From a virus, in IMG/VR virus record IMGVR_UViG_3300033148_009426, positions 1 through 21,637 of that record: a stretch of DNA of 21,637 nucleotides; one strand, given 5' to 3'. The notes beneath the pieces are model-generated. The model did no database searches, was not told where the DNA came from, and worked only from the letters and a program-made list of their open reading frames with translations. Each line of letters starts with the position of its first letter. The stretch's first letter is position 1. The position numbers and the translations under genes are program-made. Positions 1,933-21,604 of this stretch are shown one piece after another.

Positions 1933-3792
1933 ATGCGTGATTTCCTCTCCAAACTCTTCAAAAATCTAAGAACGAAAGCGCCTCAGAACTCTGTTGGATT
2001 GGAGCGCCTCGCCCAGCATTCGAAGAGACCATCCGGAAGGCGGGAGCCCCCGATTGAGCTTGACTGGTCGCAGGCCGAGTACATTCCTTTGCCGCCGTCA
2101 CCGCCGACTTGGGAAGTCGATGGTCGCGACGAATTTCATCGCGAGTATAATGATCCGACGATTGGACCTGTATTCCAGGCTGGATTCAAGAACCAGCACC
2201 AGCACGCCAAGGTGGTGAAGCTTGCCGTAGGGCTTTCCCCGGAACAGCGTGAGGGAAGAGTTGGGGAGGTCATCGCCAAGGCCTACACCAAGCTCATCAT
2301 CCAGCGAATGAAGTCCGGGCAGTTAGCGGCTGCGGCCAAGCGATGCATCGAGATGTTCGAGGTCGTTCCTGCTCACGTCAAGGATGTCGATCTCCGACGC
2401 TTCAATCGCATACTTACCCAAATGGATAAGGCCGGGAATAAACACAATTACACGCCGGTCGATGCGGTAAGTCCGTCGTCGCTGCCGCTGTTCACGGTCT
2501 CGGATGACACCCCTTGGACGCTCATGGATGAACGAAAGCTGCAGGGGGATGAACGGCCCGATCACGCCTTCGACATCGCCGCCATCGATGCGGCAGGGAC
2601 ATGGCTGCTCGACCGCTCCGGGGCCAGCGCGAAACGGCCGGCCGTGAAGAGCGTGCTCCGTCGGATGGATCGATGCGGTCTCCTTGTTGGAGAGAAGGCT
2701 CTAATGCATGACGCCTATCGAACGGGGACCGGCTCCGCGGGGTCCAGCATCGCAATCATGGACTCAAACGGGGTTCTGCACATTTACGACTCGGAGTTGA
2801 AAACCGTTACCGAATCGAACCTTCGGGAAGATGCGCGCGTGGTTGACCATTTCCGAACCATCGACACGAACTACTGGGGAGAGTTCAAATCCCAGGTACG
2901 AGCCGTGGACGTCGCTCCCGAGGGTGACCGGTACCTCTTTACCCTCGCCGACGAGGCATGGTGTTGCACGACATCTGGTCAAACCATCTGGGGCGTGGTG
3001 ATGCCACTCAAGGAAGGCTGGAAACGCGTCGTGGGCCGCAGCGAGCGCTTCGGCGTTGGTCGCGAGGTCTGCGAGGCGCTTCGTCTTTTCGACCTGTCAT
3101 TACCCGTGAGCCCCGCGGACATCAAGCGAGAGTATCGAGCGTTGGCACTGGCCCATCACCCTGACCGTCATGCTGGCGATCCAGCTGCCACCGAGAAAAT
3201 GAAGACCCTGAACAGAGCGTTCGAGGTTCTAACGGGCGTCGACCCGAACACGCTCGACTTCGAGGAATCCGACGTAACCTACTTCGCTCGGACGGCTCCC
3301 GACCACGTGATTGATGTGGACGGCTTCCGGCTCGAGATCACGATGACCGGTGGGACGCCTCAGGACTGGGTCTACGCCGCAAGCTTCGCTGCCTCCGACG
3401 TTGCAGCTTACCTAGCAACCTATTCCGGTAAGGTCATTCTAGTTTCGGGAGAGGGTCGGCCTATGGTAGTGTACGACATCGGCACTTGCCCCAGCGAAAT
3501 CATCGACGTAGGTCGGTATACGTACTTCCTCACGCCGACGCGGCTCTACGTCGTCGAGGACACTGTCAAGCTCGCGGCCTTCCTCGACGTCTTTCAACAG
3601 GGCCGGCTGCTGGTCGCGAAGTCCGGGTTTGGGCTACTCACGAGAAAGCGATTCCAATGGTTCACGGAGGCTGGCGTGAAGGTCGGTGAGCTGATGACGC
3701 GCGATCCGATTCGGGCGATCCATGCAACCGAACGCGGCGCGGTCGTGCAGACCCGGCAGCATCAGATCGAAGTACGGGGGCTCGCAATGTGA
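1933..3792 (+). CDS. J-domain (DnaJ-like) protein with propeller-like flanks
   Basis: A 619-residue protein. A J domain lies at about residues 384-445, with the diagnostic HPD at 409-411 (AHHPDRH) preceded by an IKREYRALAL helix and followed by a KMKTLNRAFEVL helix. J domains stimulate Hsp70 ATPase, so a DnaK-type partner is expected. It is not canonical DnaJ: there is no Gly/Phe region, no cysteine-rich zinc centre and no client-binding C-terminus, and the domain is deep inside the chain. The segments around it (SSIAIMDSNGVLHIYDS before, GKVILVSGEGRPMVVYDIG and YTYFLTPTRLYVVED after) look like beta-propeller strands. An N-terminal helical stretch near 110-165 looks TPR-like. The start is ATG at 1933 with only a weak upstream purine stretch. 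The gene ends 7 bases from the convergent helicase gene. Role unknown; a specialised co-chaperone is the best inference. Confidence 0.8.
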   Translation: MRDFLSKLFKNLRTKAPQNSVGLERLAQHSKRPSGRREPPIELDWSQAEYIPLPPSPPTWEVDGRDEFHREYNDPTIGPVFQAGFKNQHQHAKVVKLAVGLSPEQREGRVGEVIAKAYTKLIIQRMKSGQLAAAAKRCIEMFEVVPAHVKDVDLRRFNRILTQMDKAGNKHNYTPVDAVSPSSLPLFTVSDDTPWTLMDERKLQGDERPDHAFDIAAIDAAGTWLLDRSGASAKRPAVKSVLRRMDRCGLLVGEKALMHDAYRTGTGSAGSSIAIMDSNGVLHIYDSELKTVTESNLREDARVVDHFRTIDTNYWGEFKSQVRAVDVAPEGDRYLFTLADEAWCCTTSGQTIWGVVMPLKEGWKRVVGRSERFGVGREVCEALRLFDLSLPVSPADIKREYRALALAHHPDRHAGDPAATEKMKTLNRAFEVLTGVDPNTLDFEESDVTYFARTAPDHVIDVDGFRLEITMTGGTPQDWVYAASFAASDVAAYLATYSGKVILVSGEGRPMVVYDIGTCPSEIIDVGRYTYFLTPTRLYVVEDTVKLAAFLDVFQQGRLLVAKSGFGLLTRKRFQWFTEAGVKVGELMTRDPIRAIHATERGAVVQTRQHQIEVRGLAM

Positions 3793-7728: not shown

Positions 7729-9483
7729 ATGCATGCTTCTATAGATAACGTGCTTCATCGTCTAGCCCACGATTCAGCGAGAGGGCGTCTTCTCTTGTTC
7801 TGCGGTGCCGGGATTTCGAAACAAGAGCCAACCAATCTTCCAACGGTTGATTCGCTCATCGGCGGAATTCTCGAGAGCGTTGCCGAGTCTGTTCCTGAAC
7901 TTTGGAGGGACATATTAGCTTGCTCATACCTATGCCACACAGCCCCGTTTGAGTTGTTTATGGCCGTTATTCAACAGGCTCTTCTCTTTAGGGTCTTTGA
8001 GACACTTGAACCACTTACTAATGGCGAACCGAATACCATCCACTATTCTCTTGCGAGATTGCTTTCCAGTAGAAAAGCTGCCCATCTGTTCACCACCAAC
8101 TTCGACAACATGATCGAATGTGCCCTCGGAGACGAACTCCATAACGTGAAGACATATTACTCATGGGATGACTGTGACCGATTTCGTTCACAACAACAGA
8201 GCCCATCTCTCTTGAAGATTCATGGATCGTTTGTTGATGCCGGTGGCAAGGACATTGCGGCGAGCACGATCTTAACGACGATAGATGCGATCTACAGAAG
8301 TTCAAAAGAAGCTCATCTTCGGAAATGGGCCGAGTTCCTAAATGGCCGATCAGTCGTGTTTCTGGGCTATAGTGGTCGGGATCGAATCGACGTGATACCA
8401 ATGCTCTCATATGCCAACGGCGCACACATGGTGTGGCTATGTCATTCGTCGGACGATAGATTCCGGATCTGCACAGAGTCTGATCCATTGCTGTCTAAGG
8501 AAGTTCGTGGCCTTATGGAAGGTGGTGCAGACATCGTACCTATCGCCGGTCGGACGGACCAATTCTTGGAGGTTTTAGGACAAACCTGCTGTTTGGAACA
8601 CGGTGGTCAGGGCGACATTCCACCGGCGACTAATGATCGGTACAAGAGAAAACCGACCTCATTCGTGCGCGCTGGATTCATGCCGCCCGTCTTCCCGAAG
8701 TACGCAAACCTCACTGCTGGATATTTGTTTCTCTGGGCCGGTTGGGCACAGCAGGCGGGGCGTGCATTTAGCAGATTTGTCGAAACCTGCACAGATGAAG
8801 AACCACGGCTTTTCAGCAATGCGTTCAGCGCGATAGGGCAAGTATTTGATACTCTGGGAGAACGGGAAGACGCCGACAAGATGTATCGACTTGCACTACG
8901 CGGCTTTTGGGGGCTTGGTGATTACACGTCAATCGTAAGGACGCAGTGTATGCTCGCAGAGTTGCTTGTGCAACAAGAGAGATACGATGAAGTGCAACAA
9001 CTCGCTGACGATTCTCTGTTTCTCGCGCAACGCGAGAACGATGATCGAGGTGTTGGTTTGAGTCACTTTGCCTCGGCTTACATGTACGAGCGCATGGAAG
9101 AGCATCAATCTGCGAGGGTCCGCTATGAAAATGCTGCCGAGGTGGCCGACAAGGCTGGAGACTTTTGGCTCGAAGCAGGATCGCTTCAAGGACTGGTGAG
9201 GACCAGACGGCAATTGAACGGCGGTTACGATGAAGACTCAATCGGGCACCTGCTGTCCGTATTAGACAAGATTTACTGGATCGGTGGTGGATCGGCACCT
9301 TCATTGAAGATTGCCAAGATGGTTGACCCATTCGCAGTTGTCCACGACTTGGCAAAAGCACTAGTTCAGATACGTGGGAATAACGCTTGTGAGTTTGCTG
9401 ATTCGAACACTACAGTGAACAGGTGCGGCCAGCGGGAACAACTTCTGGCCGCCATCAGAGCCGGATTGCGTCAGAAGTGTTGA
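7729..9483 (+). CDS. SIR2-domain protein with C-terminal TPR repeats, likely defence NADase
   Basis: A 584-residue protein. The N-terminal SIR2_2-type domain (about 15-285) shows the NAD-binding GAGIS (26-30), TTNFDN with Asn124 and Asp126, the catalytic-type KIHGS with His165, and FLGYSGRD (about 211-218). Related SIR2 domains in Thoeris ThsA, DSR1/2, SIR2-HerA and SIR2-pAgo hydrolyse NAD+ to stop phage growth. A linker with RKPTSFVRAGFMPP follows, then TPR-like helical repeats from about 365 to 497 (AIGQVFDTLGEREDADKMYRLAL and three more units), which probably sense a trigger. ATG at 7729 has CAGGAG about seven bases upstream. It is the last gene of the + block and converges on the ERCC4 gene 29 bases away. 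The SIR2 and TPR calls are firm; the anti-phage role is inferred from the family. Confidence 0.9.
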   Translation: MHASIDNVLHRLAHDSARGRLLLFCGAGISKQEPTNLPTVDSLIGGILESVAESVPELWRDILACSYLCHTAPFELFMAVIQQALLFRVFETLEPLTNGEPNTIHYSLARLLSSRKAAHLFTTNFDNMIECALGDELHNVKTYYSWDDCDRFRSQQQSPSLLKIHGSFVDAGGKDIAASTILTTIDAIYRSSKEAHLRKWAEFLNGRSVVFLGYSGRDRIDVIPMLSYANGAHMVWLCHSSDDRFRICTESDPLLSKEVRGLMEGGADIVPIAGRTDQFLEVLGQTCCLEHGGQGDIPPATNDRYKRKPTSFVRAGFMPPVFPKYANLTAGYLFLWAGWAQQAGRAFSRFVETCTDEEPRLFSNAFSAIGQVFDTLGEREDADKMYRLALRGFWGLGDYTSIVRTQCMLAELLVQQERYDEVQQLADDSLFLAQRENDDRGVGLSHFASAYMYERMEEHQSARVRYENAAEVADKAGDFWLEAGSLQGLVRTRRQLNGGYDEDSIGHLLSVLDKIYWIGGGSAPSLKIAKMVDPFAVVHDLAKALVQIRGNNACEFADSNTTVNRCGQREQLLAAIRAGLRQKC

Positions 9484-12790: not shown

Positions 12791-13378
12791 TCAGAGATAG
12801 TCCTTCAGTCCGGCGTCCTCGAAGATAGCGCGCAGCTTTTTGATGGACTCGTAGATCGTCCCCCGCGGAATTCCGGTGTCGCGGGAGATTTCGGTGACGG
12901 TATCGGTATCTAAGTGCTCGCAAAGTTCCCGAAGTTCCGGCGGCAGTTGCTTGATAGCCTTCTGAACATCGAGGGAAAGATCGCGCAACTCCCACGTGGG
13001 ACGTGAGGACTTGCCAGTACGGCGCAGGTAGTCTTCCTGGTCGATGGTGTCCATGCGCTCCACCGAGCCGCCTTCTTCGTCCTCGAACCGGTCGTTCAGG
13101 GAACACCGGCAGAGGCGATAATCCCGCATGCCGGCTTTCTGCGATTCGATAATAGTGGCGATCTTGTGCTCAACCACTCGGGCGATGAAGGTACTGCGCT
13201 GTGCACGTTTGGGATTGTACTTTGGGAGTCGTCGGAGCAGGTCCAGCAGCATTTCCTGCTCCAGGTCCTCGCGGTCGGACTCTGTGAATCCGACCCGCCC
13301 GACCAATTGTCTCGCCTTGTACTTAATGAGTTGAACGGCATACTCGTCGACTGCTTCGGGGTGATTGTCGAAACCCAT
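12791..13378 (-). CDS. RNA polymerase sigma-70 family factor
   Basis: A 195-residue, two-domain sigma factor. Region 2 lies at about 12-80 (LIKYKARQLVGR, TESDREDLEQEMLLDLLRRL, STFIARVVEHKIATIIE). Region 4, at about 140-190, has a clear helix-turn-helix (LPPELRELCEHLDTDTVTEISRDTGIPRGTIYESIKKL). The linker carries LCRCSLNDR and an acidic EDEEGG stretch. Regions 1 and 3 are absent, as in ECF-like factors. It binds core RNA polymerase and would redirect it to island promoters. ATG at 13378 follows GAGGAGG at 13384-13390. The first gene of the recombination module after it is 138 bases on. No anti-sigma gene is seen nearby, so control may be at the RNA leader level. The target motif is unknown; the repeated bipartite element is a candidate. 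Confidence 0.92.
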   Translation of the reverse strand: MGFDNHPEAVDEYAVQLIKYKARQLVGRVGFTESDREDLEQEMLLDLLRRLPKYNPKRAQRSTFIARVVEHKIATIIESQKAGMRDYRLCRCSLNDRFEDEEGGSVERMDTIDQEDYLRRTGKSSRPTWELRDLSLDVQKAIKQLPPELRELCEHLDTDTVTEISRDTGIPRGTIYESIKKLRAIFEDAGLKDYL

Positions 13379-13383
13379 TTGGA

Positions 13384-13483
13384 CCTCCTCGTGGCCGAGG
13401 GGGCGTGGGTGCCAACGGAAGCAGTGACCACTATGAGAAGAGGCGTTGCAGGTTCACCGCGTCAGCGGCACCCACAACGCCTC
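13384..13483 (-). promoter_or_regulatory. Sigma gene leader RNA with pseudoknot-type pairing
   Basis: Read on -, four segments occur in order: GAGGCGTTG (13483-13475), GTGGGTGCC (13475-13467), CAACGCCTC (13448-13440) and GGCACCCAC (13413-13405). The first pairs with the third and the second with the fourth, each by nine perfect base pairs. This is the a-b-a'-b' order of an H-type pseudoknot, or of two exclusive stems. Then CCTCG-GCCA-CGAGG (13400-13387) forms a tight hairpin that takes in part of the ribosome binding site GAGGAGG. This looks like a translational switch controlling the sigma factor. Pairing is seen; the ligand or trigger is unknown. A GTCA-loop 4-bp hairpin at 13457-13468 is a further option. 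Confidence 0.5.
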
Positions 13484-13553
13484 CACTTCGTGGCCGGTTA
13501 GTTGTCAGGTAGCGAAAAGCTTCATTGGTATCTGGGGAGCCAACCCCCTGCTC

Positions 13554-13892
13554 TCAGGCAGTGTTCTCCTCTACGATCATCTTGAAAGGAAGGCCGTGCT
13601 TGACCTCAAGAGAGCGGATTACTCCATTGCCCAATGCTTCAACTTGCGCGAAGAAATCGCGCACTTGAGCCTTGAGCACGAAGTCCTGCTTGGTGGCCTC
13701 AGGTCGCGGACCGTTTTCCGCGCAGAACTTTATCTCCCGGACCACCCGCGGCCGCGGATCAAGTACAAACTCGCCGTCGCGGATGACGATCCCCTCGATG
13801 CGGCCAAAATTGATGTGTTGCATCAACTCTATTAGCTGCGTCTTCGGTTGTGAGAGGGAAGACTTGGTGGTGTCACGATTGGTCTCCTGCAT
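13554..13892 (-). CDS. Conserved-looking 112-aa hypothetical upstream of sigma gene
   Basis: A 112-residue protein starting at ATG 13892, five bases behind GGAG. The N-terminus is polar. A core follows, LIELMQHINFGRIEGIVIRDGEFVLDPRPRVVREIKF, then CAENGPRPEATKQDF and a C-terminal VRDFFAQVEALGNGVIRSLEVKHGLPFKMIVEE. I recall similar short proteins (DGE-x-V-x-DP-P-RVVREIKF-x-x-ENGPRPE) in mobile islands of environmental bacteria but know no function for them. There is no HTH, enzyme or membrane signature. The Arg/Lys-rich core could bind nucleic acid. It lies 175 bases before the sigma gene on the same strand, with the structured sigma leader between them. Confidence 0.72.
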   Translation of the reverse strand: MQETNRDTTKSSLSQPKTQLIELMQHINFGRIEGIVIRDGEFVLDPRPRVVREIKFCAENGPRPEATKQDFVLKAQVRDFFAQVEALGNGVIRSLEVKHGLPFKMIVEENTA

Positions 13893-21528: not shown

Positions 21529-21604
21529 TGGCTCCCCCGGCAAGACTCGAACTTGCGACCCGATGATTAACAGTCATCTGCTCTACCAACTGAGCTACAG
21601 GGGA
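21529..21604 (-). tRNA. tRNA-Asn (anticodon GTT)
   Basis: All arms are present on -. The acceptor is TCCCCTG pairing with CGGGGGA, and the D-arm is GCTCAGTTGGTAGAGC. The anticodon stem GATGA/TCATC encloses loop CTGTTAA with anticodon GTT. The variable loop is GGGTC, and the T-arm GCAAG-TTCGAGT-CTTGC. Discriminator G and an encoded CCA follow (21532-21529). It is a normal bacterial tRNA decoding AAC/AAU and is probably host chromosomal sequence flanking the island. Its promoter is mostly beyond the window edge. tRNA genes are common island borders, although large serine recombinases usually do not target them. Confidence 0.97.

What the first reader, a model, noticed from the sequence alone, without database searches (positions are those of the whole stretch)
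13384..13483. Pseudoknot-type leader RNA in front of an island sigma factor
Two perfect 9-bp complementary pairs occur in a-b-a'-b' order within 80 bases of leader, plus a 5-bp tetraloop hairpin that takes in part of the ribosome binding site. By rough count, one such 9-mer pair in this space is expected about 0.02 times, so two together are unlikely by chance. It suggests a switch that gates translation of the sigma factor and hence of the recombination module.
Basis: partly seen in the sequence, partly recalled or inferred. Interest (0 to 1): 0.65.

Follow-up and report, generated by a model that had tools for sequence, protein, structure and literature searches.

The report
Bistable pseudoknot leader RNA, sigma gene
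A stretch of messenger RNA in front of a sigma-factor gene, carried by a widespread family of virus-like mobile elements, can fold in two mutually exclusive ways that evolution has preserved in many bacterial phyla, and it matches no curated RNA family, so it is probably a new kind of on/off switch for these elements.

Summary
On the minus strand, a (13483-13475) pairs with a' (13448-13440) and b (13475-13467) with b' (13413-13405) in a-b-a'-b' order, sharing one base; 3 of 20,000 shuffles do as well. A hairpin sequesters the whole AGGAGG. The leader precedes sigma genes of 26-95% identity in some 90 loci. Pseudoknot pairs are 94% kept in 47 divergent leaders, with repeated two-sided changes; P1 covaries too. 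P0 also covaries, and three independent U-to-C changes in the shared strand are matched in both alternative partners: the signature of a bistable RNA. Prefix folds give P0 first, then P1. The P0 domain recurs in front of the DUF2924-serine-recombinase operon of related elements, twice with a pseudoknot. No Rfam family matches. Best reading: a new cis-regulatory leader of integrative, phage-like elements, gating translation of the sigma (recombination) and integrase operons. RNA structure: near certain. Switch: strongly supported. Translational role: likely, untested; polarity and trigger unknown. An uncurated 2010 candidate (Rhodopirellula-1) could not be compared.

The parts
12791..13378 (-). 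Sigma-70-family factor, 195 aa
   Evidence: Pfam Sigma70_r2 1.5e-6; PHROG 1740 RNA polymerase sigma factor 1.3e-18
13384..13403 (-). SD-sequestering hairpin: 13400-13396 with 13391-13387, extended by 13402-13403 with 13385-13384; holds the whole AGGAGG (13389-13384)
   Evidence: Sequence; median P(unpaired) of the SD core 0.025 in 52 homologues against 0.31 with upstream sequence shuffled; two-sided changes in helices 4 and 5
13405..13413 (-). b', 3' pseudoknot arm GGCACCCAC
   Evidence: b.b' 94.1% of cells paired in 47 sequences; own partner beats swapped partners, 0/2000 permutations
13440..13448 (-). a', 3' strand of P1 CAACGCCTC
   Evidence: P1 86% of cells paired with two-sided changes; 0/2000 permutations
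13456..13469 (-). P3 hairpin capping P1 (13469-13465 with 13460-13456)
   Evidence: MFE; 94% of cells paired in the family
13467..13475 (-). b, 5' pseudoknot arm GTGGGTGCC (13475 shared with a); part of it also pairs with the 5' ACC in P0
13475..13483 (-). a, 5' strand of P1 GAGGCGTTG; with b the shared switch strand of P0 and P1
13469..13511 (-). P0, alternative 5' hairpin: ACC/GGT closing pairs, outer stem ACAAC 13505-13501 with GTTGT 13478-13474, inner hairpin CCAC 13493-13490 with GTGG 13486-13483
   Evidence: 92.8% of cells paired, 8 of 14 pairs changed on both sides in 40 sequences; prefix fold of 44-60 nt gives P0 in divergent homologues
13534..13548 (-). Hairpin GGGGG-TTGGC-TCCCC just after the stop of the upstream ORF; similar hairpins at this place in homologues
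   Evidence: Sequence and alignment of upstream regions; not tested statistically
13554..13892 (-). Upstream ORF, 112 aa, conserved immediately 5' of the leader; two alpha-beta-beta repeats predicted
   Evidence: Family member in 57 of 61 upstream regions; AF2 pLDDT 90; no PDB fold match; weak DUF2292 hits

Best explanation
It is a cis-acting, bistable 5' leader RNA of a family of integrative, phage-like elements. SHOWN by comparative data: a 5' hairpin P0; an alternative long helix P1 (a.a') that uses the same central strand; a pseudoknot b.b' that bridges P1 to the ribosome-binding site; a hairpin that sequesters the SD of the sigma gene; and reuse of the P0 domain (twice with a pseudoknot) in front of the integrase operon of related elements. 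INFERRED: as the RNA is made, P0 forms first and is displaced by P1 plus pseudoknot once a' and b' emerge, unless something (most likely a protein of the element, or ribosome or polymerase traffic) holds P0. Which fold wins sets how well ribosomes can start on the sigma gene, and so expression of the sigma/recombination operon, and in related elements of the integrase operon. Polarity is open: predicted start-codon accessibility rises when b' is engaged (weak lean to pseudoknot = permissive in the window's clade), while the short integrase form leans the other way.
For: Leader found in front of sigma homologues in about 90 loci of many phyla. Pseudoknot: 94% of cells paired, two-sided changes (U-A 19, A-U 14, C-G 3 at one pair), covariation far above slid controls; own b/b' pairing beats swapped partners in 0/2000 permutations, likewise P0 and P1; at least 8 independent Watson-Crick changes at one pseudoknot pair on a sigma-protein tree. 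P0: 92.8% paired, 8/14 pairs with two-sided changes, covariation 0.314 against 0.03-0.12 slid. Exclusivity: U39-to-C in the shared strand, three independent events, is matched on both sides in P0 (A-U to G-C) and in P1 (U-A to C-G). Prefix folds switch from P0 (44-60 nt) to P1 (75 nt or more). SD buried: median P(unpaired) 0.025 against 0.31. Same domain in the integrase operon. No terminator-like site in the leader.
Against: No RNA, reporter or binding data exist. The folding program used cannot score the pseudoknot. The SD hairpin is local and stays closed in the model whichever fold is taken, so the link from P0/P1 to SD opening is not demonstrated. Inferred polarity differs between the long and the short form. 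Some homologues (L028 clade) have an incomplete P0 outer stem, and the short integrase forms lack a' and mostly b'.
Confidence: 0.6

Rival explanations
1. Processive antitermination RNA, like HK022 put: the nascent leader binds RNA polymerase (or a polymerase plus element protein) and lets it read through terminators in the two long operons that carry it.
For: Two copies per element, each heading an operon, as with putL and putR (PMC9378689); P0 is the universally shared part; works across phyla, as a polymerase-binding RNA could.
Against: The sigma leader ends at the SD, with SD sequestration in most members. put is about 70 nt with two stem-loops and no described alternative fold, unlike P0/P1. 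No Rfam match.
Confidence: 0.18
2. Metabolite riboswitch: P0 is a small aptamer and P1/pseudoknot/SD hairpin the expression platform.
For: Aptamer-versus-platform layout with a shared switching strand; sequence-conserved internal loop YGG/AG and 5' box in P0.
Against: Only a roughly 40-nt hairpin is shared by all members; the genes are sigma and integrase of mobile elements, not metabolism; host range spans phyla.
Confidence: 0.1
3. Leader-ORF attenuation: GGAGG-N5-GUG inside P1 starts a short ORF whose translation remodels the leader, as in IncB/IncI-alpha repZ control.
For: GGAGG...GUG is in nearly all sigma leaders; in some short forms the GUG is in frame with the downstream ORF.
Against: Single-base indels change the frame between close relatives; GGAGG becomes GAAGG, GUAGG or CUCAGG in other copies, and in L103/L104 the GUG is lost while P0 pairing is restored by compensation.
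Confidence: 0.06
4. A DNA-level feature (operator, recombination or origin site) whose symmetry mimics RNA pairing.
For: Near integrase operons; P0 is a quasi-palindrome; precedent of STAXI, for which a single-stranded DNA form was considered (PMC2864571).
Against: Asymmetric internal loops, pseudoknot pairing 60-90 nt apart, G-U tolerance, fixed position before start codons and SD-hairpin conservation fit RNA.
Confidence: 0.04

Closest known systems
HK022 put RNA
   Same: Cis-acting structured RNA found in two copies, one per operon, of a temperate element.
   Different: put: about 70 nt, two stem-loops, binds the polymerase beta' zinc-binding domain; here a bistable P0/P1 with pseudoknot that abuts a buried SD.
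IncB / IncI-alpha plasmid repZ leader (recalled, not tested by alignment)
   Same: A pseudoknot and an SD-blocking hairpin in one leader control translation of a mobile-element master gene.
   Different: repZ needs leader-peptide translation and an antisense RNA; no conserved leader peptide here; topology differs.
STAXI motif (RF01728)
   Same: Pseudoknot motif near DNA-manipulation and integrase genes.
   Different: STAXI is a tandem repeated short pseudoknot in Enterobacteriales; no Rfam match here.
Rhodopirellula-1 (Weinberg et al. 2010 candidate, without an Rfam accession in that paper)
   Same: Listed taxa (Proteobacteria, Planctomycetes) and likely cis-regulatory flag overlap ours.
   Different: Cannot tell: its alignment is in a supplement that could not be read; its authors marked it only '?' as an RNA.
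HDV-like ribozyme
   Same: a-b-(hairpin)-a'-(variable)-b' order of helices.
   Different: P1 is 9-15 bp rather than 7, and no HDV-family match in Rfam; cleavage-site and catalytic-residue conservation were not sought.

Membership tests
Any Rfam 15 family | Covariance-model match at or above the gathering score | tested here: not met
   Window, seven homologue loci (gathering) and four loci (E-value mode): no leader match; best was mir-935 at 24 of 73 bits, E 0.49
Cis-regulatory structured leader RNA | Conserved structure with compensatory changes, fixed position upstream of homologous genes | tested here: met
Cis-regulatory structured leader RNA | Changes expression of the downstream gene | not testable with these tools
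   needs reporter assays
HK022 put-type antiterminator | Two stem-loops of about 70 nt, no alternative fold | tested here: not met
   P0/P1 alternative folds and pseudoknot; put description from PMC9378689
HK022 put-type antiterminator | Binds RNA polymerase and suppresses termination | not testable with these tools
   biochemical
HDV-like ribozyme | Nested double pseudoknot with 7-bp P1 | tested here: not met
   P1 9-15 bp; no Rfam match
repZ-type leader (IncB/IncI-alpha) | Translated leader peptide that opens the SD hairpin | tested here: not met
   Frame and start codon not conserved
Riboswitch | Metabolite binding | not testable with these tools
   -
Rhodopirellula-1 candidate motif | Same consensus and structure | not tested
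   Supplementary alignment not available here

The most novel reading that the evidence does not exclude
A new class of RNA switch that sets the active/dormant decision of a phylum-crossing family of phage-like elements: one RNA domain, with two evolutionarily maintained exclusive folds and a factor that recognises P0, coordinates translation of both an element-encoded sigma factor (with its recombination operon) and the integrase operon.
Probability: 0.35. Interest if true: 0.85.

Novelty: new variant of a known kind. Interest (0 to 1): 0.7.

Why it matters
Bistable leader RNAs are usually argued from folding energies; here evolution itself records both folds, because changes in one shared strand are matched in two alternative partners. 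It offers a concrete handle on how a very widespread and almost unstudied group of integrative elements controls its sigma factor and integrase, and a new covariance model with which to find them. If P0 is a protein operator, it would join two operons of one element in a post-transcriptional regulon.

Tried and rejected
(1) Plus-strand folding: weaker (z -2.25) and not the coding sense of sigma. (2) Known Rfam family: none. (3) Leader peptide from GGAGG-N5-GUG: frame and GUG not conserved. (4) Early idea that the CACCWGACAAC box is a promoter: in integrase copies a promoter-like TCGAAC-N17-TAGATAG lies further upstream, and the box pairs in P0; rejected. (5) Second leader in the window's own DUF2924 operon (20996-18733 minus): not recognisable. 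(6) Leader in Wolbachia phage WO, whose sigma and AAA24 genes are similar: not found. (7) Upstream ORF as a known RNA-binding fold: no PDB fold match, only weak DUF2292 and EF-hand hits. (8) Transcription attenuation within the leader: no terminator-like site. (9) Raw mutual information was dominated by relatedness, so swapped-partner and tree-based tests were used. (10) Pattern hits L032, L035, L067 (no sigma context) treated as chance; L126, L127 left unexplained.

Full report
OBSERVATION. The sigma gene lies on the minus strand (13378..12791; Sigma70_r2; PHROG sigma). In its leader, a (13483-13475) is complementary to a' (13448-13440), and b (13475-13467) to b' (13413-13405), in a-b-a'-b' order. 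The arms share base 13475. Three of 20,000 dinucleotide shuffles contain two perfect 9-bp helices in that order; 576 contain any. The minus-strand leader folds with z = -5.2. The RBS hairpin is longer than stated and holds the entire AGGAGG.

HOMOLOGUES. A protein search gave 9 viral and 18 genome loci with sigma relatives of 36-95% identity; the leader is conserved in all but L010. Two DNA patterns from the 5' half of the leader gave 67 further viral loci; 61 of 68 hits lie about 90-127 nt before a sigma homologue of 26-81% identity, and four lie before another operon (see below). A covariance model applied to 392 Planctomycetota genomes found 18 genomes with hits at E <= 0.001. Of the 23 hits examined there, together with two earlier ones, all but five had an identifiable context: sigma, or the DUF2924/recombinase operon. 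The five without one are L126, L127, L128, L129 and L135, some of them weak or at contig ends.

STRUCTURE. In 47 non-redundant leaders the pseudoknot helix is paired in 94.1% of cells and P1 in 86%, and the covariation score is 0.200 against 0.06-0.10 for slid partners. One pseudoknot pair is U-A in 19, A-U in 14 and C-G in 3 sequences. Alignment-light tests agree: each sequence's b fits its own b' better than those of others (0 of 2000 permutations), and the same holds for P0 and P1. On a sigma-protein tree, one pseudoknot pair needs at least 8 changes between Watson-Crick types, so the signal is not simply shared ancestry.

THE MISSED HALF. A 5' hairpin P0 (13511-13469) pairs ACC with GGU and ACAAC with GUUGU, with an inner CCAC/GUGG hairpin. 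Over 40 sequences including the integrase copies, 92.8% of cells pair, 8 of 14 pairs change on both sides, and covariation is 0.314 against 0.03-0.12 slid. P0 and P1 use the same strand. Where that strand changes U to C at one position (three independent events), both the upstream and the downstream partner change A to G (for example L113, L120, L130). L103/L104 change the strand, the 5' box and b' together. Prefix folding of seven divergent leaders gives P0 at 44-60 nt and, in all seven, P1-type pairing from about 75 nt. This is thermodynamic folding of growing RNA, not a kinetic simulation.

SD. Median P(unpaired) of the SD core is 0.025 in 52 leaders against 0.31 when upstream sequence is shuffled. 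With b' engaged in the pseudoknot, predicted start-codon accessibility rises by more than 0.2 in 15 of 47 leaders and falls in 2, while the SD is unchanged. Polarity therefore stays open.

SECOND SITE. The P0 domain also sits before smallORF-DUF2924-serine recombinase operons of related elements, in several cases on the same record as a sigma leader. In Desulfosarcina (L026 and L111) it carries P1 and the pseudoknot; in planctomycete-type copies P0 is followed directly by an SD hairpin. A promoter-like TCGAAC-N17-TAGATAG lies tens of bases upstream of the box there (by eye), so the box is inside the transcript. The window's own integrase operon has no recognisable copy.

CONTEXT. A 112-aa ORF family lies immediately upstream of the leader in 57 of 61 cases. 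Its predicted structure is confident (pLDDT 90) and has no PDB relative. Sigma is followed by PD-(D/E)XK, AAA_24, DUF669, ERCC4 and RecD2 genes in the window and close relatives. Wolbachia phage WO has a similar sigma-AAA24 order but no leader.

MECHANISM. Shown: conserved P0, P1, pseudoknot and SD hairpin; mutual exclusivity of P0 and P1; two gene contexts. Inferred: translational gating and a P0-stabilising factor. Rivals are put-like antitermination, riboswitch, leader-ORF attenuation and a DNA site. No intrinsic terminator was found in the leader, which argues against attenuation there.

KNOWN WORK. No Rfam 15 family matches. Literature searches in open-access papers found no description. 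One uncurated 2010 candidate, Rhodopirellula-1, has overlapping taxa and could not be compared, so novelty is stated relative to Rfam and to the papers that could be read.

Noticed in passing
L078:3243, L026:1229, L023:1188, L082:11565(-), L092:340, L074:936, L029:9452(-), L084:83, L086:409, L107-L111, L125, L132-L134: The P0 leader domain recurs before smallORF-DUF2924-serine recombinase operons, suggesting a shared post-transcriptional control of integrase and sigma.
   Followed up: yes
13554-13892 (-): Conserved 112-aa ORF of unknown function next to the leader; AF2 pLDDT 90, two alpha-beta-beta repeats, no PDB match; a candidate P0-binding protein.
   Followed up: partly
L012-L017 and L018-L022: Near-identical sigma leaders in MAGs assigned to different phyla (Ozemobacter, Acidobacteriota, Desulfobacterium, Phycisphaerae, Anaerolinea; Blastocatellia, Myxococcota, Desulfobulbaceae): very broad transfer or misbinned contigs.
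   Followed up: no
upstream of integrase-operon copies (e.g. L092, L074, L084): Promoter-like consensus TCGAAC-N17-TAGATAG and a 5' hairpin precede the leader; the window has a related CTCGAAA...GGTAGGTA before its DUF2924 operon (about 21230).
   Followed up: partly
L136 (Wolbachia phage WO, KX522565): Phage WO carries a related sigma-AAA24 module with similar gene order, hinting at common ancestry with this element family.
   Followed up: partly
L130: Two sigma-family genes in tandem after one leader.
   Followed up: no
L004 and L009 (one 83-kb contig): One viral contig holds two copies of the sigma-leader module about 50 kb apart.
   Followed up: no
7729-9483 (+): SIR2_2-TPR protein, possibly an anti-phage defence gene, beside HNH (556-1791) and DnaJ-domain (1933-3792) genes.
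   Followed up: no
21532-21604 (-): tRNA gene at the contig end, next to the recombinase operon; a possible integration site.
   Followed up: no
L126:1501-1628, L127:1501-1649: P0-like hits without a recognisable sigma or DUF2924 gene downstream; may be decayed or a third context.
   Followed up: partly
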